From positions 3,534,001 through 3,598,000 of the forward strand of contig NZ_AP025144.1 in assembly GCF_019977755.1 (NCBI RefSeq): a stretch of 64,000 bases of DNA, in the 5' to 3' direction. Below, in pieces: positions 31,451 through 49,505 of the stretch; positions within the stretch are counted from its first letter, which is position 1, and the number at the start of each line of letters is the position of its first letter. This stretch comes from Vibrio penaeicida. Lineage in GTDB: Bacteria > Pseudomonadota > Gammaproteobacteria > Enterobacterales > Vibrionaceae. The position numbers and the translations under genes are program-made. The notes beneath the pieces were generated by a model. That model did not search any database. It worked only from the letters and a program-made list of their open reading frames with translations, and had not been told where the DNA came from.

Positions 31451-31527
31451 TGGCGCGCTCGGAAGGATTCGAACCTTCGACCGCCTGGTTCGTAGCCAGG
31501 TACTCTATCCAGCTGAGCTACGAGCGC
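31451..31527 (-). tRNA. tRNA-Arg(ACG), type A, copy 1
   Basis: A 77-base cloverleaf with encoded CCA. The acceptor stem starts GCGCTCG and pairs with CGAGCGC. The anticodon loop reads CTACGAA, giving anticodon ACG, which TadA is expected to deaminate to ICG. The T-stem is GAAGG with CCTTC. Confidence 0.97.
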
Positions 31528-31578
31528 GCTGTGTTCAATATTACATGAGTAATATCAGGATCTAATGACCCTTAATAG

Positions 31579-31655
31579 TGGCGCGTCCTGGAGGATTCGA
31601 ACCTCCGACCGCCTGGTTCGTAGCCAGGTACTCTATCCAGCTGAGCTAAGGACGC
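31579..31655 (-). tRNA. tRNA-Arg(ACG), type B, copy 1
   Basis: A 77-base tRNA with encoded CCA and the same anticodon loop as type A. The acceptor stem is GCGTCCT with AGGACGC and the T-stem GGAGG with CCTCC. Both stems differ from type A by paired changes. Confidence 0.97.
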
Positions 31656-31692
31656 GAAGTCTGTACGGCAGATGCCTAACAGTTTTAAATAA

Positions 31693-31769
31693 TGGCGCGC
31701 TCGGAAGGATTCGAACCTTCGACCGCCTGGTTCGTAGCCAGGTACTCTATCCAGCTGAGCTACGAGCGC
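31693..31769 (-). tRNA. tRNA-Arg(ACG), type A, copy 2
   Basis: The 77-base tRNA carries CCA, anticodon ACG and the type A acceptor stem, and is identical to copy 1. Confidence 0.97.
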
Positions 31770-31820
31770 GCTGTGTTCGATATTACATGAGTAATATCAG
31801 GATCTAATGACCCTTAATAG

Positions 31821-31897
31821 TGGCGCGTCCTGGAGGATTCGAACCTCCGACCGCCTGGTTCGTAGCCAGGTACTCTATCCAGCTGAGCTAAGGACGC
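31821..31897 (-). tRNA. tRNA-Arg(ACG), type B, copy 2
   Basis: The 77-base tRNA has the type B acceptor stem and T-stem, anticodon ACG and encoded CCA. Confidence 0.97.
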
Positions 31898-31934
31898 GAA
31901 GTCTGTATGGCAGATGCCTTACAGTTTTAAATAA

Positions 31935-32011
31935 TGGCGCGCTCGGAAGGATTCGAACCTTCGACCGCCTGGTTCGTAGCCAGGTACTCTATCCAGCTGA
32001 GCTACGAGCGC
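31935..32011 (-). tRNA. tRNA-Arg(ACG), type A, copy 3
   Basis: The 77-base tRNA is identical to the other type A copies. It is the end of the 242-bp tandem series. Confidence 0.97.
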
Positions 32012-32077
32012 GCAGGTTGTGAACTATATCACATTTCATTTCTTCAGAAACAAAAAAATTGACCTTTGGCCAATAAA

Positions 32078-32170
32078 TGGCGGTGAGGGAGGGATTCGAA
32101 CCCTCGATACGGCTACAAACCGTATACTCCCTTAGCAGGGGAGCGCCTTCAGCCTCTCGGCCACCTCACC
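32078..32170 (-). tRNA. tRNA-Ser(GCT), copy 1
   Basis: A 93-base tRNA with the long variable arm of the serine class. The acceptor is GGTGAGG with CCTCACC, the anticodon region reads CTGCTAA (anticodon GCU, codons AGC/AGU), and CCA is encoded. Confidence 0.97.
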
Positions 32171-32197
32171 GCATTACATTCCAAAACTTAGGAATAA

Positions 32198-32274
32198 TGG
32201 CGCGCTCGGAAGGATTCGAACCTTCGACCGCCTGGTTCGTAGCCAGGTACTCTATCCAGCTGAGCTACGAGCGC
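32198..32274 (-). tRNA. tRNA-Arg(ACG), type A, copy 4
   Basis: A 77-base type A tRNA-Arg. It lies between the two tRNA-Ser copies, suggesting a Ser-Arg duplication separate from the 242-bp array. Confidence 0.97.
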
Positions 32275-32329
32275 GCTTTGTCTTATTGGACGTTGAAAAT
32301 ATCAACATTTATAAGAGCATGTGCAAGAA

Positions 32330-32422
32330 TGGCGGTGAGGGAGGGATTCGAACCCTCGATACGGCTACAAACCGTATACTCCCTTAGCAGGGGAGCGCCT
32401 TCAGCCTCTCGGCCACCTCACC
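32330..32422 (-). tRNA. tRNA-Ser(GCT), copy 2
   Basis: The 93-base tRNA is identical to the first tRNA-Ser. It is the first tRNA of the transcript, directly downstream of the promoter at 32438-32465. Confidence 0.97.
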
Positions 32423-39547: not shown

Positions 39548-39562
39548 ATTTCAACCCCATAA

Positions 39563-39596
39563 AAAATACCCAGAACAACGCTATTCTGGGCATTTT
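39563..39596 (-). terminator. Terminator of the 39.6-49.2 kb operon
   Basis: Reading minus, AATGCCCAGAA and TTCTGGGTATT pair (one G-U wobble) around a short loop, followed by TTTTTT. It lies 19 bases after the stop codon of the TelA-like gene. Confidence 0.8.
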
Positions 39597-39614: not shown

Positions 39615-40676
39615 TTAATTTTCAAGAGTCTGAGACAGCGCTTCTTTCAGTTCTTGCTCCGCTTTTTCGATAACAGACTGTGCATGCGCACGTTGTTCTC
39701 GCCCTTCTTTCACTCTCGAAAGCGTGTTGTTCAGTGTTTCAATCGTCAACTGATTCACGGTTTCTAGCGACTCTAAATCCAGAATGCCACGCTGGTAGTT
39801 TTCAGAGATTTGCTCTTCTAGCACTTTCAGCTTCTCAGCATTCTTTACGTATTGTTGATTGGTGTAATCTTTTACAGCACGGGTCACCTTGAGGGCTTTC
39901 TCTTTTTCGTAATTAGAAATCGCAATCAAGAATTGGCGCTTCCACAATGGGAATGTGTTGTGCACGATATCCTGAATGTCTTCCATCAGCATCTTATTGC
40001 CTTCTTGAGACAAACGAATCTGAGGGGCAGTTTGAATCGCTGCCATTCGAGTCAGCTCAAGATTGTGTATGCGTTTTTCTAAGCGGGCGACCGCTTGAAC
40101 CGCATCGCGATGTTTTTGTGCATCCAATGCATCAGGCGACTTCTCAGCTTCCACTAATAGGGAAGGAAGCACATCGGAATTCATTTGGCTCAGTTTCCAC
40201 TTACCTGCGGCAATGTAGTCATCCAGACCATTCAATAACGCTAAGTTTTCATCGTAAAGTGTATCGAGACGGCTAATGTCGTGCCCTAGCTTAAGCTCCT
40301 GTGCTTCCAGTTTTCCTGAAAGCTGTTCTAAATGTTGCTTCACCGTATCAAAGCTGTCTGAGAATTTTTTGAACGAATCAAACAACTCACCGATGAGTGG
40401 CAAACTGGAAAGAAAGCTTTTCTCTTTCAAGTAGTCAAACTCTGCGCTGTTCATCGAGCTGACCATTGATTGTAAGATTTCACCAGCTTCACCTGTATCT
40501 CTAATACGCACTTGATCAAGTACGGTATCGGAAAAATTGGTAATGCTTTCCAGTGCTTCTTTACCAAATGTAATAGTAGCCACGCTATCGAACGGGTCGA
40601 AATTTTGTGCTAATTCCAGAACCTGAGGACTGAGGGCGTCTTCTGTTGCTTCATCGGTTTTAACCATATCGGTCAT
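39615..40676 (-). CDS. TelA-family protein
   Basis: The 353-residue protein belongs to the TelA/toxic anion resistance family (PF05816 type). Signature blocks are LDTLYDENLALLNGLDDYIA, AGKWKLSQMN, RIHNLELTRMAAIQTAPQIR and HNTFPLWKRQFLIAI. It has no membrane span and is mostly helical with coiled-coil stretches (about 110-160 and 270-350), so it is likely cytoplasmic. TelA proteins confer tellurite or envelope-stress tolerance in some bacteria, but the biochemical role is not known. It is last in the operon, 12 bases after the phospholipase-D-like gene. Confidence 0.88.
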   Translation of the reverse strand: MTDMVKTDEATEDALSPQVLELAQNFDPFDSVATITFGKEALESITNFSDTVLDQVRIRDTGEAGEILQSMVSSMNSAEFDYLKEKSFLSSLPLIGELFDSFKKFSDSFDTVKQHLEQLSGKLEAQELKLGHDISRLDTLYDENLALLNGLDDYIAAGKWKLSQMNSDVLPSLLVEAEKSPDALDAQKHRDAVQAVARLEKRIHNLELTRMAAIQTAPQIRLSQEGNKMLMEDIQDIVHNTFPLWKRQFLIAISNYEKEKALKVTRAVKDYTNQQYVKNAEKLKVLEEQISENYQRGILDLESLETVNQLTIETLNNTLSRVKEGREQRAHAQSVIEKAEQELKEALSQTLEN

Positions 40677-40688
40677 TGAGAACTCTCC

Positions 40689-41399
40689 TTATGCAAGTTC
40701 AGGTTGATGGAATGGAAACTTTTGCCAAAGCTGTTCAAACTGCTTTTGATACGGCTTAACAAAGCGCGCGTCATCCGTCAGCGTAATGTCTTCTTCATTG
40801 TACTTAGACGCACTACGCGTCCAGTTAAAACTGCCATTTAGCAAGCGAACACCATCGAAAATCGCAAATTTATGATGCATATGATAAGAAGTGGTATCAA
40901 CCTTCACTTCCACACCTTTCTCCACCAAATAATTCACATCGTTACCCTTATCAAAGATCTTATCGTTGTCTGTTATAACTCGAACTTTTACACCACGTTG
41001 ATGGGCTTTAATGATGTGCTTCGTCAATTCGTCGTCTGCAATGGTAAAGACGCAGATATCAATCGTGTGACGAGCTTGATTAAGCTGCTTAATGATCCCT
41101 TCCGCACAAGAACGTCCGGGAGAAAACCAGCACCCAACTAAATCACCACCCGCATCCGATTTTGCGTTATCCAGCACCTTGATGGTCTTTTCAAGCCAGC
41201 GTACGATGCTGCTTGCATCGGCACCGTCATTGATATTTTGATGAGCCAATTTAAAACTTTGATTGCGTAGGAATGAGCGATCTTCCTGGTTGAGTTCAGC
41301 ATTACTTAACTTGTCGTTAAGTTCACGTCTCTCAGAATCATCCAAGCGGTGATCTTCAATCGATGACTTAAGCAGTTCATGCAGTTGTTCCCTATTCAC
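40689..41399 (-). CDS. Phospholipase-D-fold protein with one HKD motif
   Basis: The 236-residue protein has one C-terminal phospholipase-D/nuclease-fold unit (about 85-230). The HKD motif is in HMHHKFAIFDG (about residues 174-184), followed by LLNGSFNWTRSAS. One HKD motif means it should act as a dimer, as in Nuc-type nucleases and cardiolipin hydrolases. The first 80 residues are an acidic helical domain with DDSERRELNDKLSNAELNQ, somewhat reminiscent of TerB or EF-hand helices; I do not claim identity. It starts with GTG at 41399, exactly after the stop codon of the AAA+ gene, so the two are translationally coupled. Substrate, lipid or nucleic acid, is unresolved. Confidence 0.82.
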   Translation of the reverse strand: MNREQLHELLKSSIEDHRLDDSERRELNDKLSNAELNQEDRSFLRNQSFKLAHQNINDGADASSIVRWLEKTIKVLDNAKSDAGGDLVGCWFSPGRSCAEGIIKQLNQARHTIDICVFTIADDELTKHIIKAHQRGVKVRVITDNDKIFDKGNDVNYLVEKGVEVKVDTTSYHMHHKFAIFDGVRLLNGSFNWTRSASKYNEEDITLTDDARFVKPYQKQFEQLWQKFPFHQPELA

Positions 41400-44300
41400 C
41401 TATTTATCTCCTAATCCTTGAGTGACGCGACTCATTGTTTGGTTAAGCGCGGCAAGTTGTTGTACAACCTGCCCTGCCCTATCTTCAGAATCTCCCATCA
41501 ACTGGTTCCGCTGATAGCCTTCTCTGATCTCATTCCAGCGAGCTTGTTGCTCCTGTGTCATTCCGCCACGAAGTTCTGCCAATTTCAGCAAGTTTTCTTC
41601 AGTGCCGTTTGTCAGTGTTTGGGCTTCGCCCTGATAGTGATCTTGCAAAAGTGTTTGAAGTTCTTCTTCGGTCATCACCGATGAGATCTTCTCTGCCAAC
41701 TTATTCATGTTCCGATAAGAACCCTGCAACTTAAATGGCGGTTCTACACGGTATTGATCCGCGGTAGCGGCAGACGCGATGTATTGTTGGTTAACTTTAA
41801 GTACGGTTTGCTGCACAGTGAGCAGCTTCTGCAAAGTCGATACGATTTCAGAAGACTCAGTCGCAGAGTAGGAGTGAGACATATCACTCAATGGAATGCC
41901 TTCACCATTCGCCATTCGTACAAAGCGATACAAGTCGTTCAGATCACGGGTCGCAAGAGGAGCAAGAACAGGGTGAGAAGTCAGCGAGTTCTCTACAAAA
42001 CTGAGTTCAAACGCCTCTTTCTGATCCGACAACATGTCACCTAGGTTGTAGATGTCTGCACGGTTTGCCAACATATCTGGGATTCTGAACATATCGCCAG
42101 ATTCCGTATATGGGTTACCGGCCATCACGACTGAGAACTTCTTGCCGCGCATATCGTAAGTCTTAGTTTCCCCACGCCACGTGCCTTCAATTCGCCTTGT
42201 GCCATCACACAGAGATATGAATTTCTGCAAGAATTCGGGATGAGTGTGCTGAATATCATCGAGATAAAGAAGAACGTTGTTCCCCATTTCAAACGCGAGG
42301 TTGATCTTCTCAATCTCTCGAGCGGCATTTTGATCGGGTGCATCACGAGGATCAAGCGATGTAACTTGATGCCCAATCGACGGGCCATTGATCTTCATAA
42401 AGACCAAGCCCAACTTATGCGCCACATACTCGATCAAGGTGGTTTTACCATAACCAGGAGGGGAAATAAGAAGCAACATCCCCATCAAGTCGGTGCGCTT
42501 ATTTTCTCCGACCGTGCCCATTTGCTTGGCAAAGTTGTCACCAATCAGCGGAAGATAACTTTCACTGATCAGCTTGTTACGGACAAAAGAGGTAAGCGGC
42601 CTTGGTTTGAATTCGCCAAGTCGGAAGTCTGATTTCGCTTCTTGCAGCAATTCCGCTCTCTTATTGAGGTACGACTCAAATTGCGGAATCGTAATACTAC
42701 GGTGAAGTTCGCAGCGCTGCAGAAAATCGTCTAGAACCAAGTTCAACTTACCTTGCTCTAGATTTCCATGTTCACCCAGTAACCCTTCAACCTCACAAGT
42801 CAGTGAAAATTCAACAGGGCTAAGGGAAGGTTCAGGCTGTTCTTTCCAAACTGCTATCGCAGCGGCTTCAACGACAAACGCTTCTCCACGGCTTTGCTGA
42901 ACTGTGTAGGCTGTTAGCCATTGAAGGTGATCTTGCATACTGACTTCAGGTGCCGCTTTGCTAGAGCTCCAACCCAAGCTGCGGCGGAATTGTAAGTAGT
43001 CATCACATAACTCCATCGCATCACGGCTGACTTCAATTCGATCGTCCGATTTGGCTAGGAGTTGAATCAAATAGTCACTGGCATCAATCAGTACGCCACG
43101 CCCAAACTGAGTGAGGTTGGGCTCCAATTCCTTTTGCAGCTGTTGGTACACATCGGGCGATTGTAAGTGCGTTTTAAGCAAATTCGCGTTGTTTGCTTTC
43201 GCCTTCCAATCAGAAAGATCTTTGCGTTCTTGGGCAATGAGCCACATCCAAGCAGTCGCGCGTTCTTTTTGTCCAAACCGAAGCGATCCAGCTTGCTCAA
43301 AAACAGGAAGGAGTTGATTTAGAATCTTTTCTGCATCGTGATCATGAATACCTTTGACGTAGCCCTCTTTGTAGCGAGGCGCTGAAAAACGTTGAACCAA
43401 ACTGAGTAATTGACCCGATTTTCTCGCTGCCAGTAGCGCATCAACATCAAAGACATCCGCCAAATTCATTGCGGAATGTAAGATCAAGTAGGATAAATAT
43501 TCTGCACGGTAGATGGTGTCTGTTTCAGAGGCAACATCCAATTTGGAGATATTTTGCAGTGCAAGGAATTCTTCATCTTCAATAGATTGATAGAAATCCG
43601 TTCCAGAGATATGGGTGTTCAGCTCACCAGCATGCTCCACCAATGTGATGTCCAACGGTTGCTGGTTTACACTGAATCGGTGTTTACCTAGACGTAGAAT
43701 CTTGCCACCGTCTTCAAAGATGTCTTGGTTATCTCTCAGAGAACGAAGCGATTGGTCTTGCACCGATTTCAGTTTTGCATCAACACTGTCTGCTTTTACG
43801 CTGTCACCCAAATCGCGTATGGAATCCGACAACTGGCGCAACTTCATCACCATTGCGTCTGTAGCAAAATAGCTGTTTAACCCAGCCACATCATCAAATC
43901 GAGCAACACGTTTTTCAATGCTATTGAAGGTAACATTAGCCGCTTGTAACAAGTTTTGAATCCGGCGCTGCTGAGCACTCACCAACTGCTGTTTGTGGTT
44001 CTCCAGCGTGGACTGGATTTCATCGCGCTTGGTGTAGATTTCTCCAAGAAACTCATCAAAGTCCGCAAATCTCGATTCGAGCTTTTCAAGCTGACCGATT
44101 AATTTGGCGAGCTGGTTATCACACTCATCCGGTGTCGTCGCTTGCTCCATGGCACTGTTGACCGATTGTGCAAGTAATTTGAACTGAGCACCAAATTCCG
44201 CTTTGGCTTCGTCGCTACGTAAACCACTATTTTTGTTTCTGAGCTTCGCCGATACCGCATTCAACATGGACGACACTTCAGTAGTCATGTCTAGAATTCG

Positions 44301-46271
44301 AGTCGACTGTGTCGGATCTTCCGTTTCAATGTCGGTGACTTCTTCTGTCACTAACTGAAGCTCTGAGCGTAGTTGTTCGACCTGTTCTTGAAGGTCTTGA
44401 ATATCCGACGTTTTTTCTACCGTCTCTAGCTGTTCTTCAACCGATTGGATTTGCTTCTTAAATGGCTGATAGGCTTTTTCATCTTGCAGTAACTCGAGTA
44501 ACTGCAGATTCAAATATTGTCGTTGTTCATCCAGCGACGCTAACAGCTCATCGACCTTCAACGTATTGATGTAATGATGTTGTCGCAGCGCCATGGTGTT
44601 ACCCACCTGCGCTTTCACTTCGGAAAGAAGCGTTAACAGGCTTGCGGCTTGATCTTTGGGCGCTAGCTTTACTTTGCCAATCAATGCCGTGACGGCTTCA
44701 GATTCTTGCTCTAGCGCGTGTAACGCATGGACTTGAAGCTGCTGAACTTTGGCAAATTCATCAATGATTTTATCGGATGTAGCCATCACCTCTTGGATGG
44801 CATCACCGAGCCCTAGCGCATAGTCGTGAGCTAACCAATGGTAATGATCCAATGTTGCCTGACACTGTTTCAGCAACGCTTCGTATGCCGCTTGGGTAAC
44901 TTCCTCCGTCGACGCAAAATGACAAATCGACAGCACCGACGACAAAGCTCGTACTAATTCTGCATTGCCCAGATTAAACAACGGGCTCGATGCATCACTT
45001 TTCGCGCTGTGGCGGCTGTAGTAATCCGGGGTTGAATACGGGGTTTCCCATATTCTCATCGGGTGAATTGTAGAAGCTTCTGCGTTTTCAGAAAGTTGGA
45101 ATACCAATAAACGCCCGTCTGGATACAAACTGTAGCCGTGGCTTTCCATTGGCGCAGAAAACTGCTTTTCAATCATGTTGTAGGTATAAACAACGTAATA
45201 CCCTTTGACCATGTTGAAAAAGATGTACATCAGATCTTCACCATTCGGAGAGGCTATCTTTTGGAAGAATTTAAGATCCTCCCATGGCATATCGAAATGC
45301 TTGCTCTCTCCATTGGCTAGAACAAAGCCATGAGAGTAAAGAATACCGTGCTCTTCAGGCAGTTCTTTTGCACTTACACCTAACGCATCCGCACGTGTCA
45401 CGGCTTGGTTTAGTGGGTTGTATAGAAAATAGCGTTCTTGCTTTTCTCGGTTCGGTAGAACTCTAAGAGCAATCAGATCACCAATAAACGCATAAGCAAT
45501 ACTCGCATCGGCAACACTTTGGTGAGGGTCATCCACCTCTTCGCGGTAGATCCCTTTCCCCTCTTCGGTATTGTCTTCTACTTTGATGGTAAGGTCGCCA
45601 CCTACACATTCCACAAAAAGCTTATCTTTGATAGAGACGTGAGGGTATTTCCCTAGAACATGATCGTCACGTGTGGTTTCAATCCAGTCAAAATCATGTT
45701 GAGTTGCTGACTCTAATGAGGTGTGTCCAAGCGAATCAATATATTCAATAGAGTGCTTGTTCAGTTGGAATCGGAATACTTTGCGATCTTCCGCACGCAT
45801 TCCAATTTGGAAAGCGATATACAGTGTGCTTTCTTGCCGAGAAATTTGTGCCAACTTGGCATCTTGATAATAGGTAAACAGCTCGGTGAATTCATGCACA
45901 AAACGAGGTTCAGAGAGAAAGCTCTCTTTCAAACTGATGGGTTCTATTCTGAATGTGCCATCATTTTCATGCAGTTGGTAAAGACCAAATACATCTTCTA
46001 ACGCGGGTTGCGATTTCATGCCGACATGTACTTCGTAACCGAACAATAATTGCTGGTTAACCTGCGCCATATCGACTGGTACACATCGCGCTTCCGTCTG
46101 TACATTCGCTTTGCCGATCAAAGAGAGTTCTTGACCGCCAAAAACCTGCTGACGTTGCTGATTGAATTGTTGAGAAATGTCTTTAAGTTTGCTGCCTTGT
46201 TGAGAAAGGCGAGACTTCAGCACCTCGTAGGCACCGCCTTCAGTGACAGCCTGCTGAGTTGTTTCTGACAT
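41400..46271 (-). CDS. Giant coiled-coil AAA+ ATPase (annotated elsewhere as a DNA-repair ATPase family)
   Basis: The 1623-residue protein starts MSETTQQAVTEGGAYEVLKS at ATG 46271, with AAAGG upstream. A seven-codon longer frame is open. The N-terminal region (about 40-430) is beta-rich, with many short strands and WET, YTYN and FF motifs that suggest a propeller-like or sensor module. A long coiled-coil and helical region (about 500-870) is followed by a helical middle domain (about 900-1230). The C-terminal AAA+ module has Walker A SPPGYGKTT near residue 1272, Walker B VLLYLDDIQ near 1336, and arginine-finger candidates around RIPDMLANRAD near 1400. No membrane segment. I recall this family as a DUF3686-type DNA-repair ATPase, but function is unproven. 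It is central to the operon. Confidence 0.78.
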   Translation of the reverse strand: MSETTQQAVTEGGAYEVLKSRLSQQGSKLKDISQQFNQQRQQVFGGQELSLIGKANVQTEARCVPVDMAQVNQQLLFGYEVHVGMKSQPALEDVFGLYQLHENDGTFRIEPISLKESFLSEPRFVHEFTELFTYYQDAKLAQISRQESTLYIAFQIGMRAEDRKVFRFQLNKHSIEYIDSLGHTSLESATQHDFDWIETTRDDHVLGKYPHVSIKDKLFVECVGGDLTIKVEDNTEEGKGIYREEVDDPHQSVADASIAYAFIGDLIALRVLPNREKQERYFLYNPLNQAVTRADALGVSAKELPEEHGILYSHGFVLANGESKHFDMPWEDLKFFQKIASPNGEDLMYIFFNMVKGYYVVYTYNMIEKQFSAPMESHGYSLYPDGRLLVFQLSENAEASTIHPMRIWETPYSTPDYYSRHSAKSDASSPLFNLGNAELVRALSSVLSICHFASTEEVTQAAYEALLKQCQATLDHYHWLAHDYALGLGDAIQEVMATSDKIIDEFAKVQQLQVHALHALEQESEAVTALIGKVKLAPKDQAASLLTLLSEVKAQVGNTMALRQHHYINTLKVDELLASLDEQRQYLNLQLLELLQDEKAYQPFKKQIQSVEEQLETVEKTSDIQDLQEQVEQLRSELQLVTEEVTDIETEDPTQSTRILDMTTEVSSMLNAVSAKLRNKNSGLRSDEAKAEFGAQFKLLAQSVNSAMEQATTPDECDNQLAKLIGQLEKLESRFADFDEFLGEIYTKRDEIQSTLENHKQQLVSAQQRRIQNLLQAANVTFNSIEKRVARFDDVAGLNSYFATDAMVMKLRQLSDSIRDLGDSVKADSVDAKLKSVQDQSLRSLRDNQDIFEDGGKILRLGKHRFSVNQQPLDITLVEHAGELNTHISGTDFYQSIEDEEFLALQNISKLDVASETDTIYRAEYLSYLILHSAMNLADVFDVDALLAARKSGQLLSLVQRFSAPRYKEGYVKGIHDHDAEKILNQLLPVFEQAGSLRFGQKERATAWMWLIAQERKDLSDWKAKANNANLLKTHLQSPDVYQQLQKELEPNLTQFGRGVLIDASDYLIQLLAKSDDRIEVSRDAMELCDDYLQFRRSLGWSSSKAAPEVSMQDHLQWLTAYTVQQSRGEAFVVEAAAIAVWKEQPEPSLSPVEFSLTCEVEGLLGEHGNLEQGKLNLVLDDFLQRCELHRSITIPQFESYLNKRAELLQEAKSDFRLGEFKPRPLTSFVRNKLISESYLPLIGDNFAKQMGTVGENKRTDLMGMLLLISPPGYGKTTLIEYVAHKLGLVFMKINGPSIGHQVTSLDPRDAPDQNAAREIEKINLAFEMGNNVLLYLDDIQHTHPEFLQKFISLCDGTRRIEGTWRGETKTYDMRGKKFSVVMAGNPYTESGDMFRIPDMLANRADIYNLGDMLSDQKEAFELSFVENSLTSHPVLAPLATRDLNDLYRFVRMANGEGIPLSDMSHSYSATESSEIVSTLQKLLTVQQTVLKVNQQYIASAATADQYRVEPPFKLQGSYRNMNKLAEKISSVMTEEELQTLLQDHYQGEAQTLTNGTEENLLKLAELRGGMTQEQQARWNEIREGYQRNQLMGDSEDRAGQVVQQLAALNQTMSRVTQGLGDK

Positions 46272-46335
46272 GCTTATACCTTTAAAACCCACACTTACAG
46301 GAAGTCAGTGTGGGTGTTGGACTCAATAGGGGCGA

Positions 46336-48489
46336 TTAAGATTCTGTGCTATCAGAGGTGTTTACCGTCTGCTGAATTTTCTTCAGAAGTTCTGTTGCAC
46401 CACCTTGAGAGTTAAGTAAGCTCGCCAGAGCTACATTACTTAAATCACTGCTTTTCAGGTCTGTATTTCCTAGAATGTCTTTGATGTCTTGCGGCAAGCT
46501 GCGGTCGCCATTCATGTATTCCGCAACGAATGGGTTCAAGACTTTCGACTCTTCAAATTTCACATCCATCGACGCAGAATCAATCACAGTGCGGCGAATT
46601 TGCTCCATACCGTCGCCACCAAATAGCTTGATGTCTGCGGCTGCCAAGGCTTGTGCCAACGCTTTCGCGCTTTCACTTGAAACGTCTCTTTGAGCATCAA
46701 TACGCGCCAGATCCAGCTCTTTCTCTTGCTGAAGCTGCATAACCCACTTGTCGTGTTCACGAGTTTGGTCATCGTATTTCTGAGCCGCTTCAAAACGTGC
46801 GGTTTGCGATTCTGCTTCAGCCAGACCTTTCGCGCGTAGTGCGTTCGCTTCTGCTTCACCAGCACTTTGCAATGTGTATGCTTCCGCTTCACCGGTTTCA
46901 CGTATCGCTTGGGCGCGTTCACGATCCACTTCCACTTGCGCCAAACCAGTTGCACTGATTTCTTCTTTCTCTGCAAGTGCCATGCGCTCTTTCGCAGCGG
47001 CTTCACGCTCTTTCAACAAGTATTGCGCTTCTGCTTCTTTCGCTGCAGCTTCTAGTTCAGCTTCCGCTTGACGCTGGCGCACAACTTTTTCTGCATCCGC
47101 TTGTTTGGTTGCCACTATATGTGCAGCTTCTGCTTCACGAGTTTTCACCGCTAATTCGTTTTCAGCATCACGAGTTTTCACTTTCAATTCTGCGTCTTTC
47201 TCGATCAACAAACGCTCTGCTTTTTCTTTCGCTGCGTCTTTTTCAGCACGTGCTGCGACAAGTAACTCAAGTTGTTTCGCTTCTGCAACGGCTTCAGCCT
47301 CAACCATAGAAACACGCTTCTTACGGTTAACTTGCTCATTGACACGCAAGTTTTCAGTTTCTTCCTCTTCACGTGCAATCTTTCTTTCAATTTCTACGCG
47401 TTGTGAACGAGTTTCAGCGACGGATTTAAGTGCTTCTTCTACAGATGTTTCTTTTTCCATCTCTTTTTGTACCACTTCAGAAGAAGTGCGAACTTTTTCA
47501 GTTTCAACCGCACGGCTTAGCTCTTCTTCTTGAATCGCTACCTGACGCTTATTCGCGATACGCGTCATTTCGACTTCCATCTCTACACTTTCACGTTTCT
47601 TAGAGACTTCTTCTTCGGTTTCTAATTTCGCAAGCTGAGAAACACGTTCGTATTCTTGACGCTTCTCTTCAGAAAGTGCATTTTCTTGCGCTTCAATAAT
47701 TTCAATTTCGCGCTGAGTACGTGCAATGCTTTCTTTTTCTTGCTTATCCAATTGAAGGCGGTTTGCTTCTGCTTCAACGTCTTTTTTCTTGATGGTTGTG
47801 CGCTCGTCTTGGCGGATCGCATTAGTTTCGGTGTTCTTCTGAGCAGTAATAGAAGAAATTTTGCGAATACCTTCAACATCTAGAATGTTATCTGGGTTGT
47901 GTGCTTCAAGTGATGTTTGGTCAATCTTATCAATAACAACATCATAGATTTTGAAACCATCCATTTCGCTACCGATAACTTGTACAACGGCATCACGGAA
48001 TGCGCGTCGGTTGGTTAGCAGCTCTTCAAACTCAAACTGCTTAACCGCTGTTTTTAATGCTTCAGAGAACTTAGGTTGGAAGTGCTCTTTAAGACGGTCT
48101 AGGTTAGATGCTTCATTTGCTGTGAAGAGTTTCGCTACGCGAACAATGTCGTCTTCTTCATGGTTAACACCAATGTAGAAATCCACTTTCAAGTCTGCGC
48201 GGATATTATCGCTACAATGCAAGCCTTCGTATTCTTCGCCTTCTTGGTCTTTACGACCACTGCGAACAACCGAGATTTTCTTACGTGTGATATCCATATA
48301 TTCGAATCGGTTTACAACCGGCCAAACAAAGGTACCCGTTAGTGATGCTCGTGTTCTGTCGATGCCATTTACGATTAAGGCTTCACCTTCAATTCTGACT
48401 TTTTTATAGCGAGAAGTAAGGAAAATAAGAACCATTAAAAATAGCACGACACCGGCTAATATGAACACCATACTGGGTGATAAAACCAT
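46336..48489 (-). CDS. Flotillin-like SPFH coiled-coil membrane protein (YqiK type)
   Basis: The 717-residue protein has an N-terminal membrane helix (about 6-26, VFILAGVVLFLMVLIFLTS) and an SPFH/prohibitin domain (about 30-205). A very long Ala/Glu/Lys-rich coiled coil follows (about 215-620), full of heptads such as KEAEAQYLLKEREAAAKER. The C-terminal region is less charged. Flotillins form membrane microdomain scaffolds. I use the ATG at 48489; a TTG two codons earlier is possible. The AAGGAG is six bases upstream. It is followed by the AAA+ gene 64 bases on. E. coli YqiJ-YqiK is a comparable pair. Confidence 0.9.
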   Translation of the reverse strand: MVLSPSMVFILAGVVLFLMVLIFLTSRYKKVRIEGEALIVNGIDRTRASLTGTFVWPVVNRFEYMDITRKKISVVRSGRKDQEGEEYEGLHCSDNIRADLKVDFYIGVNHEEDDIVRVAKLFTANEASNLDRLKEHFQPKFSEALKTAVKQFEFEELLTNRRAFRDAVVQVIGSEMDGFKIYDVVIDKIDQTSLEAHNPDNILDVEGIRKISSITAQKNTETNAIRQDERTTIKKKDVEAEANRLQLDKQEKESIARTQREIEIIEAQENALSEEKRQEYERVSQLAKLETEEEVSKKRESVEMEVEMTRIANKRQVAIQEEELSRAVETEKVRTSSEVVQKEMEKETSVEEALKSVAETRSQRVEIERKIAREEEETENLRVNEQVNRKKRVSMVEAEAVAEAKQLELLVAARAEKDAAKEKAERLLIEKDAELKVKTRDAENELAVKTREAEAAHIVATKQADAEKVVRQRQAEAELEAAAKEAEAQYLLKEREAAAKERMALAEKEEISATGLAQVEVDRERAQAIRETGEAEAYTLQSAGEAEANALRAKGLAEAESQTARFEAAQKYDDQTREHDKWVMQLQQEKELDLARIDAQRDVSSESAKALAQALAAADIKLFGGDGMEQIRRTVIDSASMDVKFEESKVLNPFVAEYMNGDRSLPQDIKDILGNTDLKSSDLSNVALASLLNSQGGATELLKKIQQTVNTSDSTES

Positions 48490-48519
48490 GACCAACTCCT
48501 TAAAGGGTTTTAATTGTAT

Positions 48520-49164
48520 TTATGCTTTCGCAACGACATAGCGCTGCGATTCATTATCTTTAGACACGATGACCACTTCATCGCCATATTGAATGTCTTG
48601 CTGACTGCTGGATAGCACATCCAACAACACTTCATTGCCGTTATGCAGAATAATGACCTCTCCACCAACATCTTGGCTAACTTGGCTACTGTGCACTTTT
48701 GCTCTGAGCCCAATGTAGTCAATCTTGGCAAAAGCGTTTTCTTTGTTAAAAAACGGAGCCAATGGTTTAAGCAAGATCGATGCTATGTATAGAGCTATGT
48801 AAGCAACAATCGGCAATGAAATAGCACCAAAGACAATAGACAGCGTATCGGATAAAGAAGAAAGTAGAATAGTATCGAGGTAGTACTCGATAATCGTTGC
48901 GACAAACAGGCTAACGCACAACGCAATAGGCAGTGGAACCTTGGTTAATATAGGAGGCAAAATGAGGCTGCCACCTGTCATATTATCCAAATCAACAATA
49001 TCCAGTTCACCTAATAAGCCTTCAAATACATCAAAGACCAAATCAATGAGCATGATGACAAAGAAGATGATAAAAGGAATAAAAAAGACGTTCGTCGGAA
49101 ACGAAAGTAGTACCGACAAAAACAGTTCAAAAGCCATGCGTTTATCCAATTTGTTGTTAGTCAC
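48520..49164 (-). CDS. YqiJ/NfeD-type membrane OB-fold protein (GTG start)
   Basis: The 214-residue protein has three to four membrane helices (about 10-45, 75-95, 108-130) and a C-terminal soluble OB-fold of the NfeD/YqiJ kind (about 150-214, YIGLRAKVHSSQVSQDVGGE). These proteins partner SPFH proteins at the membrane. The frame starts GTG at 49164 with a weak ribosome site; an in-frame ATG at 49137 (MAFELFLSVLL) is the alternative. It is the first gene of the operon and lies 30 bases before the flotillin-like gene. Confidence 0.83.
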   Translation of the reverse strand: MTNNKLDKRMAFELFLSVLLSFPTNVFFIPFIIFFVIMLIDLVFDVFEGLLGELDIVDLDNMTGGSLILPPILTKVPLPIALCVSLFVATIIEYYLDTILLSSLSDTLSIVFGAISLPIVAYIALYIASILLKPLAPFFNKENAFAKIDYIGLRAKVHSSQVSQDVGGEVIILHNGNEVLLDVLSSSQQDIQYGDEVVIVSKDNESQRYVVAKA

Positions 49165-49505
49165 TGCCTAGCCGGGCTAATGCTAACGTTATCTATTTAA
49201 GATTTATTTTCAAAACGATACAGAACGACCTATTAAAATAAAAGTCAGTTACAGGGTTTATTGATGCGCTTCAAAAAAATACATTGAATTTATTATCAAT
49301 GAGAAATTAGTTCAGAATTCATATTTAAGAATTGCTATTCCGTGGAACAAAATCGTGTTCCATTTAAGCTCGCGCTAACATGTACGTTTCTCATCCTGTC
49401 TGTTGGATTACAACCAAGCCTAAAACGCCATTGCTTTCTGGCTGGCTGGTTAATATCATTTACGCCACATTTTTGTCTGATAAGACAATCAAAAAGGAAA
49501 AACCA
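49165..49505. promoter_or_regulatory. Divergent promoter region between the operon and mutS
   Basis: This AT-rich region of about 340 bases must hold the promoters of both the minus-strand operon and mutS. The clearest feature is a dyad TGGAACA, six bases, TGTTCCA at 49343-49362, which could be an operator. I could not identify a convincing sigma-70 box for the operon. The in-frame region 49380-49505 ahead of mutS is open but probably untranslated. Confidence 0.45.

What the first reader, a model, noticed from the sequence alone, without database searches (positions are those of the whole stretch)
39615..49164. Five-gene membrane-flotillin / giant AAA+ / HKD / TelA operon of unknown function
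Five tightly packed minus-strand genes form one apparent transcript. They encode a YqiJ/NfeD-like membrane OB-fold protein, a flotillin-like SPFH coiled-coil protein, a 1623-residue AAA+ ATPase, a single-HKD phospholipase-D-fold protein and a TelA-family protein. Gene gaps are 30, 64, 0 and 12 bases, and a terminator closes the unit at 39563-39596. The parts list, a membrane scaffold, a large mechanochemical ATPase, a hydrolase for lipid or DNA and a TelA protein, suggests a membrane-linked stress or antiphage/antiplasmid system. It sits as a cassette between pncC and mutS, where at least some vibrios, from memory, carry other genes. TelA and TerB-type genes occur in predicted chemical-stress systems described by Anantharaman, Iyer and Aravind; the match here is suggestive only.
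Basis: partly seen in the sequence, partly recalled or inferred. Interest (0 to 1): 0.85.

Follow-up and report, generated by a model that had tools for sequence, protein, structure and literature searches.

The report
Membrane-remodelling ATPase operon, TelA version
Five neighbouring Vibrio genes form what looks like one operon of a recently described bacterial membrane-stress module, but with the TelA protein where relatives carry PspA, which hints that TelA, long of unclear function, does a PspA-like job at the cell membrane.

Summary
The five genes, their order, gaps and closing stem are as described. Host: Vibrio penaeicida or a near relative. The core triad (NfeD/YqiJ-like OB protein, flotillin-like SPFH protein, 1623-aa DUF3686 AAA+ ATPase) is present in this order in 62 of 62 full-flank loci from Pseudomonadota, Myxococcota, Planctomycetota and Actinomycetota. 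It is the PspA-linked band-7/AAA+/YqiJ/HKD operon printed in 2024 (PMC11237479), so the module is not new; its PspA version fits the P. aeruginosa bac operon, which has phenotypes.

New here: no DUF2170-PspA dyad in the Vibrio operon; TelA stands downstream instead. Of the 62 loci, 30 have PspA only, 12 TelA only, 1 both, 19 neither. The ATPase tree needs at least two TelA placements (Vibrionaceae; Lysobacteraceae, where one Lysobacter carries both). HKD is optional (24 of 62; 7 of 13 TelA loci). In the genus, the TelA subfamily and DUF3686 occur in the same 4 of 61 genomes, all between mutS and pncC, a site empty in 25 of 29 other vibrios read.

Most likely an envelope-stress membrane-maintenance machine in which TelA takes the PspA role (0.55). 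Antiphage and tellurite readings are weakly supported.

The parts
48520..49164 (-). OB: YqiJ/NfeD-like inner-membrane protein with a C-terminal part taken to be an OB fold (fold recalled, not tested) (214 aa)
   Evidence: 28% identity, E=9e-16 to the Pseudomonas composti operon member; TM-like stretches within residues 11-54 and 66-139; family alignment A5
46336..48489 (-). FLOT: flotillin-like SPFH coiled-coil protein with N-terminal TM-like stretch (717 aa)
   Evidence: start read; alignment A2, 31-35% identity to the 17 non-Vibrionaceae operon members aligned; Band_7 recognised in 2 of 23; TM-like 1-29
41400..46271 (-). AAA+: DUF3686 + DUF7902 + AAA_5 ATPase (1623 aa); the ORF can also start at GTG 46292
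   Evidence: GYGKTT (Walker A) at 1273, YLDDIQH (Walker B) at 1336, NP motif at 1383, SYR motif at 1517 (motif names recalled; positions); residues 1190-1600 the best conserved part, 0.77 mean column identity over 14 sequences
40689..41399 (-). HKD: single-HKD PLD-fold hydrolase (236 aa), accessory
   Evidence: PLDc_2 E=2.1e-32; HxKxxxxD and GS.NWTRS invariant in 17 of 17; closest solved relatives mitochondrial cardiolipin hydrolase E=1e-41, then nucleases
39615..40676 (-). TelA: PF05816 protein, last gene; sister operons without it mostly carry a DUF2170-PspA dyad upstream
   Evidence: E=1.2e-76; no TM-like stretch; highest hydrophobic moment in residues 92-112 (0.66, net charge about -2; the best HKD window reaches 0.60, so weak evidence)
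39561..39590 (-). Terminator-like stem and T-run that closes the operon
   Evidence: read; same stem
49165..49379 (-). 215-bp spacer to divergent mutS; presumed to hold the operon promoter
   Evidence: no sigma-54-like match inside it among the 84 loose matches in the window; no sigma-70-like match listed in it; poorly conserved between loci

Best explanation
It is the TelA version of the PspA-linked NfeD-flotillin-AAA+ operon. The OB protein and the SPFH protein build a membrane scaffold (inferred from family). The DUF3686 AAA+ ATPase, with a large N-terminal part and an AAA_5-type motor near its C-terminus (shown: domains and motifs), is recruited to it and remodels a coiled-coil partner at the inner face of the membrane (inferred). 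In about half of the relatives that partner is PspA with its DUF2170/CesT-like companion; here it is TelA, a protein without TM segments (shown: gene content; inferred: role). The HKD hydrolase acts on lipid (cardiolipin-type) or nucleic acid and is dispensable to the unit. The output is maintenance of the inner membrane under osmotic or other envelope stress.
For: Triad in 62 of 62 full-flank loci of 81 (19 loci dropped for short flanks: 3 of them with PspA, none with TelA). PspA and DUF2170 occur in identical sets of loci (34 of 81 each) and are exclusive with TelA but for one: PspA only 30, TelA only 12, both 1, neither 19 of 62. TelA needs 2 placements on the ATPase tree and starred branches force 2: Vibrionaceae 7 of 7; a Lysobacteraceae clade of 6 whose relatives L064 and L038 have PspA+HKD, with L050 carrying both. 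TelA is there whether HKD is (7 of 13) or not (6 of 13). TelA subfamily and DUF3686 in the same 4 of 61 Vibrio genomes. 18 longest-contig lengths are shared between the TelA and ATPase database tables, including Neptuniibacter and Amphritea entries, which suggests same-contig pairs. Prior print of the module: PMC11237479 section 19 (read whole). The PspA version fits P. aeruginosa bac: RT-PCR products across each bacA-F joint (PMC10948618 passages), PspA member raised by osmotic shock (PMC2587700 passages), PA3728 listed as ATPase (PMC8190622 passage), PA3728-PA3732 up in all phage-infected samples (PMC12041424 passage).
Against: No sequence similarity between TelA and PspA profiles (hhalign probability 0.1; the same runs gave a known TelA only 60, so it is weak evidence). 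The same genome has a DUF2170-PspA dyad elsewhere and a second PspA, so TelA does not stand in for a PspA missing from the cell. The exclusivity rests on two lineages, so Fisher p=5.5e-4 overstates it. 19 of 62 operons have neither partner. TelA mostly lives without DUF3686: 21 of 23 TelA-positive genomes of the class draw lack it, and 2 of 4 DUF3686 genomes lack TelA over cut-off. Deleting the flotillin of the P. aeruginosa operon had almost no effect (about 20% less biofilm; PMC13086221 passage). I found no experiment on a TelA-type operon.
Confidence: 0.55

Rival explanations
1. Membrane-protein quality control: the SPFH/NfeD scaffold holds damaged membrane proteins and the AAA+ unfolds or extracts them, with TelA or PspA as adaptor rather than as membrane-shaping polymer.
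For: HflKC-FtsH and the S. aureus flotillin that stabilises unfolded proteins are precedents (PMC11222466, start of abstract only; PMC13086221 passages). Rhomboid protease gene in 13 of 62 full-flank loci.
Against: No protease family among the five window genes, and no rhomboid in the 12 TelA-only loci; the commonest extra partner is a coiled-coil protein, PspA or TelA (43 of 62).
Confidence: 0.2
2. Antiphage or antiplasmid defence: HKD nuclease plus AAA+ motor at the membrane.
For: Patchy presence, 4 of 61 Vibrio genomes; HKD also resembles Nuc and NucT nucleases and DrmC of DISARM (E=5.5e-11); one copy lies beside a Card1/Csx1-like nuclease gene (L009); P. aeruginosa PA3728-PA3732 rise on phage infection.
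Against: No PADLOC match for TelA, flotillin or OB; neighbours in the window are housekeeping genes (pncC by Pfam; mutS, recA by recall) and those scanned at 4 of 5 other Vibrionaceae copies are ordinary (the many L007 hits are generic helicase matches); HKD, the nuclease candidate, is absent from 6 of 13 TelA loci; base composition is that of the surroundings.
Confidence: 0.12
3. Tellurite or ter-type chemical-stress system.
For: TelA family member. In L011 a MarC-family gene with a sub-threshold TerC match follows TelA.
Against: No Ter or StiP family among the five genes. A TerD/StiP operon of another Vibrio (L149) has its own TelA pair, which falls in another part of the TelA tree than the window's TelA.
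Confidence: 0.06

Closest known systems
PspA-linked band-7/AAA+/YqiJ operon (PMC11237479, section 19)
   Same: NfeD/YqiJ-type TM protein, flotillin-like protein, AAA+ with long N-terminal part, optional HKD hydrolase
   Different: That group carries CesT/Tir(DUF2170)-PspA; here there is none in the operon and TelA stands after the ATPase. TelA has 0 occurrences in that paper's main text; its supplements were not readable here
Pseudomonas aeruginosa bac operon (bacA-F; PA3732 to PA3728 and on)
   Same: DUF2170, PspA, short NfeD, SPFH and an ATPase gene, as in the Pseudomonas loci (PA3728 is named only 'ATPase' in the passage I saw; its identity with DUF3686 is my inference)
   Different: PspA version, putative sigma-54 site reported; no TelA named
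YuaF-FloT (B. subtilis) and YqiJ-YqiK (E. coli)
   Same: NfeD-like/flotillin pair (PMC2636767 and PMC11237479 passages)
   Different: No DUF3686 ATPase, HKD or TelA with them (recalled; DUF3686 rang in 0 of 14 control genomes, a control set that one search shows to hold E. coli and B. subtilis)
Ter/StiP/TerD systems with TelA
   Same: TelA family
   Different: No Ter genes here; different TelA branch
MitoPLD/Zucchini and Nuc/NucT
   Same: single-HKD PLD fold (the name Zucchini is recalled)
   Different: has an extra N-terminal part of about 90 residues with no consistent Pfam match

Membership tests
PspA-linked band-7/AAA+/YqiJ operon | YqiJ/YuaF-type membrane protein gene | tested here: met
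   (homology to operon members and TM-like stretches; not compared with YqiJ itself)
[quoted passage not shown]
   homologous to the flotillin-like genes of PspA-type operons by alignment; Pfam Band_7 in 2 of 23 members and not in the window protein
PspA-linked band-7/AAA+/YqiJ operon | AAA+ with N-terminal beta-propeller and coiled coil | tested here: inconclusive
   DUF3686/DUF7902/AAA found and same family as in PspA-type operons; propeller fold not tested, structure prediction switched off
PspA-linked band-7/AAA+/YqiJ operon | CesT/Tir (DUF2170)-PspA dyad in the operon | tested here: not met
   absent from the window operon and from 11 further TelA-only loci; a dyad is present elsewhere in the genome
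PspA-linked band-7/AAA+/YqiJ operon | optional HKD hydrolase | tested here: met
   same HKD family, 41-45% identity to the 12 non-Vibrionaceae operon members aligned
Ter chemical-stress system | Ter or StiP genes with TelA | tested here: not met
   only TelA present; contrast L149. The list of defining genes is recalled
Known antiphage system | PADLOC family match of the core genes | tested here: not met
   TelA, flotillin, OB none; AAA+ JetC E=9e-6; HKD PLD-type matches, best DrmC E=5.5e-11
Known antiphage system | placement in defence islands | tested here: inconclusive
   1 of 5 other Vibrionaceae copies beside a clear defence-type gene, two nearby genes scanned per locus; sample too small for enrichment
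ESCRT-III/PspA superfamily (for TelA) | PspA/ESCRT-III fold | tested here: inconclusive
   no profile similarity; no convincing solved relative, best a mitofusin fragment at E=0.0086; structure prediction unavailable

The most novel reading that the evidence does not exclude
TelA is a PspA-like membrane polymer protein, either an unrecognised fold relative or a convergent replacement, that the DUF3686 AAA+ ATPase assembles or disassembles in the manner of Vps4 and ESCRT-III; evolution put TelA in the place of PspA at least twice in the same operon, which would give the old 'toxic anion resistance' family a mechanism.
Probability: 0.25. Interest if true: 0.75.

Novelty: new variant of a known kind. 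Interest (0 to 1): 0.5.

Why it matters
TelA proteins are widespread and, as far as I recall, their biochemical role is unsettled. Their recurrent placement in a membrane-ATPase operon where relatives carry PspA gives a concrete, testable role at the inner membrane, and ties the DUF3686 ATPase (annotated 'DNA repair ATPase'; the word DUF3686 is in no paper of the library) to envelope stress rather than DNA repair. The Lysobacteraceae series PspA, PspA+TelA, TelA offers natural intermediates.

Tried and rejected
Recent mobile cassette: base composition is not odd, and the four Vibrio copies and V. ostreicida sit at the same site, so either one old insertion with many losses or repeated use of the site; not resolved. 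DNA repair because of mutS and recA nearby: neighbours differ in five other Vibrionaceae. TerB-like N-terminus of HKD: no TerB among Pfam matches of the 17 members at E up to 1. Sigma-54 control as reported for bac: no match in the spacer, and 84 loose matches in the window against 98 by chance. TelA-PspA homology by profile: none. Two TelA lineages recruited: rejected as one clade with the long-branch TelA rows of other Vibrio loci in (AU p=0.0019), but without them the two operon TelA groups with their database kin form one side of a branch at support 79; left open. The first AU test (p about 5e-53) was unfair because nested database rows were held out; I discard it.
Full report
What is there. 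The five minus-strand ORFs, gaps (30, 64, 0, 12) and closing stem are confirmed. Pfam gives TelA, PLDc_2, and DUF3686 + DUF7902 + AAA_5 over cut-off; the flotillin-like and OB proteins have no Pfam hit over cut-off, but align with relatives, and 2 of 23 flotillin-family members hit Band_7. No NCBIfam model reaches its cut-off. In PADLOC the HKD protein has PLD-type matches (best DrmC, E=5.5e-11) and the ATPase a weak JetC match (E=9e-6); the other three have none. The window's TelA is 99% identical to a Vibrio penaeicida entry; the window lies on the 4.13-Mb contig of a three-contig genome of 6.78 Mb.

Neighbourhoods. With the window that makes 81. Home-made profiles were used to call genes, with one representative of each family checked in Pfam. 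62 loci have at least 5.5 kb before and 3 kb after the ATPase; the other 19 were dropped from counts (3 of them with PspA, none with TelA). A gene counts if it lies anywhere in the fetched flanks, up to 10 kb a side. In the 62: OB 62, flotillin 62, PspA 31, DUF2170 31 (the same loci), HKD 24, TelA 13, rhomboid 13, RHH-like 7, Zn-ribbon 6. OB, flotillin and ATPase lie in this order on one strand in 62 of 62; the OB hit of L057 is 4 kb away, and the flotillin-ATPase gap is over 300 bases in 11 loci. The dyad is on the other strand in one locus, L068. TelA against PspA: both 1, TelA only 12, PspA only 30, neither 19. HKD: 7 of 13 TelA loci, 16 of 31 PspA loci (L050 in both groups), 2 of 19 with neither. 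The sample leans to relatives of the query and is uneven across phyla. In GC-rich loci profiles also ring on overlapping false frames; score thresholds were set by eye to exclude these.

History. On the ATPase tree (FastTree, 81 rows) TelA needs two placements, and starred branches force two: the Vibrionaceae clade (7 of 7) and a Lysobacteraceae clade of six, next to L064 and L038, which have DUF2170-PspA and HKD. The tool warns that the Vibrionaceae stem is a long branch whose own place is unsure. Within the Lysobacteraceae clade L050 (Lysobacter xinjiangensis) holds a TelA-like gene, DUF2170, PspA, OB, flotillin, ATPase, TelA and HKD; the other five have a TelA-like/TelA pair and neither PspA nor HKD. 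That looks like a passage from PspA through both to TelA. Whether the two operon TelA groups come from one TelA lineage is open: rejected when TelA rows of other Vibrio loci (L098-L101, at least one from a TerD operon) are included (AU p=0.0019), not rejected without them (trees).

In the genus. DUF3686 occurs in 4 of 61 genomes and the close TelA subfamily (72-100% identity) in the same 4; five of the 61 carry another TelA at 28-31%, and the window's own genome a further one found with Pfam. In all 4, and in V. ostreicida, the operon sits between mutS and pncC. pncC was found in 60 of 61 genomes; I could read 29 loci besides the window's. In 25 of these mutS lies next to pncC with 13-124 bases between the matched parts; 4 show no mutS within 1.5 kb and were not followed. 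In a class-wide draw of 229 genomes DUF3686 is in 4 and TelA over cut-off in 23, both in 2, one of those (G203) on different contigs. So TelA is a lineage-bound partner, not part of a universal five-gene unit.

Prior knowledge. [quoted passage not shown] That is this module. TelA, tellurite and Vibrio have no occurrence in its main text. The P. aeruginosa bac operon fits the PspA version: BacA is DUF2170, BacB PspA, BacC short NfeD and BacD SPFH (PMC10948618, PMC13086221, PMC2587700, passages), and PA3728 is listed as an ATPase (PMC8190622 passage). PMC13086221 found this flotillin in two of ten other Pseudomonas species, P. composti among them; L025 of my set is P. composti and has DUF2170-PspA-OB-flotillin-small gene-ATPase-rhomboid-HKD. 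Against a perfect fit, that paper did not find it in its P. stutzeri genome, while a Stutzerimonas stutzeri strain of my set (L020) has the operon. Data on bac: RT-PCR products across each joint, PspA member raised by osmotic shock but not by heat, bacA and bacB mutants defective in biofilm and rhamnolipid, the genes raised on phage infection (PMC12041424 passage), while the flotillin deletion is nearly silent. PA3729 and PA3732 are listed as downregulated in a temperature transcriptome (PMC4957987 passage).

Mechanism. Shown: gene content, ATPase motifs with the AAA part best conserved, intact HKD motif in 17 of 17, TM-like stretches only in OB and flotillin. Inferred: scaffold, recruitment, remodelling, and TelA in the PspA role. 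For TelA the supports are its place, its near-exclusivity with the dyad, its two placements, and a weak amphipathic stretch; against are the lack of any profile similarity with PspA and the presence of the dyad elsewhere in this very genome, in a yjfI-type operon with ion channel, DUF350 and a glutathionylspermidine-synthase-like gene. The HKD profile is nearest to mitochondrial cardiolipin hydrolase (E=1e-41) and then to nucleases; lipid or nucleic acid cannot be told from sequence.

A further hint. The same genome has a second TelA on the 285-kb contig, in an operon with ABC transporter, VWA, binding-protein and OmpA genes (for one of the two OmpA-type proteins both the OmpA and the binding-protein match are below Pfam cut-off), and a similar order occurs in another class member (L144). 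The PSP paper describes PspA or Snf7 proteins, with an AAA+ ATPase, in operons with ABC parts and binding-protein/OmpA proteins. If these are the same kind of operon, TelA stands where PspA does a second time; I did not test this further.

Verdict. Real operon by layout and conservation, known module, new TelA variant. The single-system idea holds for the triad and, in this lineage, for TelA. Envelope-stress membrane maintenance is the best reading; antiphage and tellurite roles are not excluded by experiment.

Noticed in passing
G000 contig C3, L089:1446-10284: Second TelA (383 aa) in an ABC-transporter/VWA/OmpA operon on the 285-kb contig, a setting in which the PSP paper reports PspA or Snf7.
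   Followed up: partly
L149-L152 (Vibrio genomes G001, G028, G032, G043): Other Vibrio TelA genes; in L149 a TelA pair precedes two TerD genes and follows StiP/PELOTA and C-C-bond-lyase genes, a ter-type stress operon. The other three were compared only by blast and ORF layout.
   Followed up: partly
L093:5866-10974 (own genome C1:3132000-3144000): DUF2170-PspA dyad with ion channel, DUF350 and glutathionylspermidine-synthase-like gene: resembles the third operon group of the PSP paper, in the same genome.
   Followed up: yes
L011:7852-14871: In Veronia nyctiphanis both the flotillin and the ATPase reading frames are split in two, so the operon may be decaying or the assembly has errors.
   Followed up: no
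L009:5382-6548: Card1/Csx1-like CARF nuclease gene beside the Photobacterium aquae copy of the operon.
   Followed up: no
L104, L112, L122, L127: Four Vibrio genomes without mutS in the 1.5 kb before pncC; what lies there was not examined.
   Followed up: no
L019:9623-9910 and similar genes in L022, L025, L079: Small gene of about 80-100 aa between flotillin and ATPase in pseudomonads; the one scanned (L019) has sub-threshold EF-hand matches.
   Followed up: no
window 31451-32422: Array of six tRNA-Arg(acg) and two tRNA-Ser(gct) genes.
   Followed up: no
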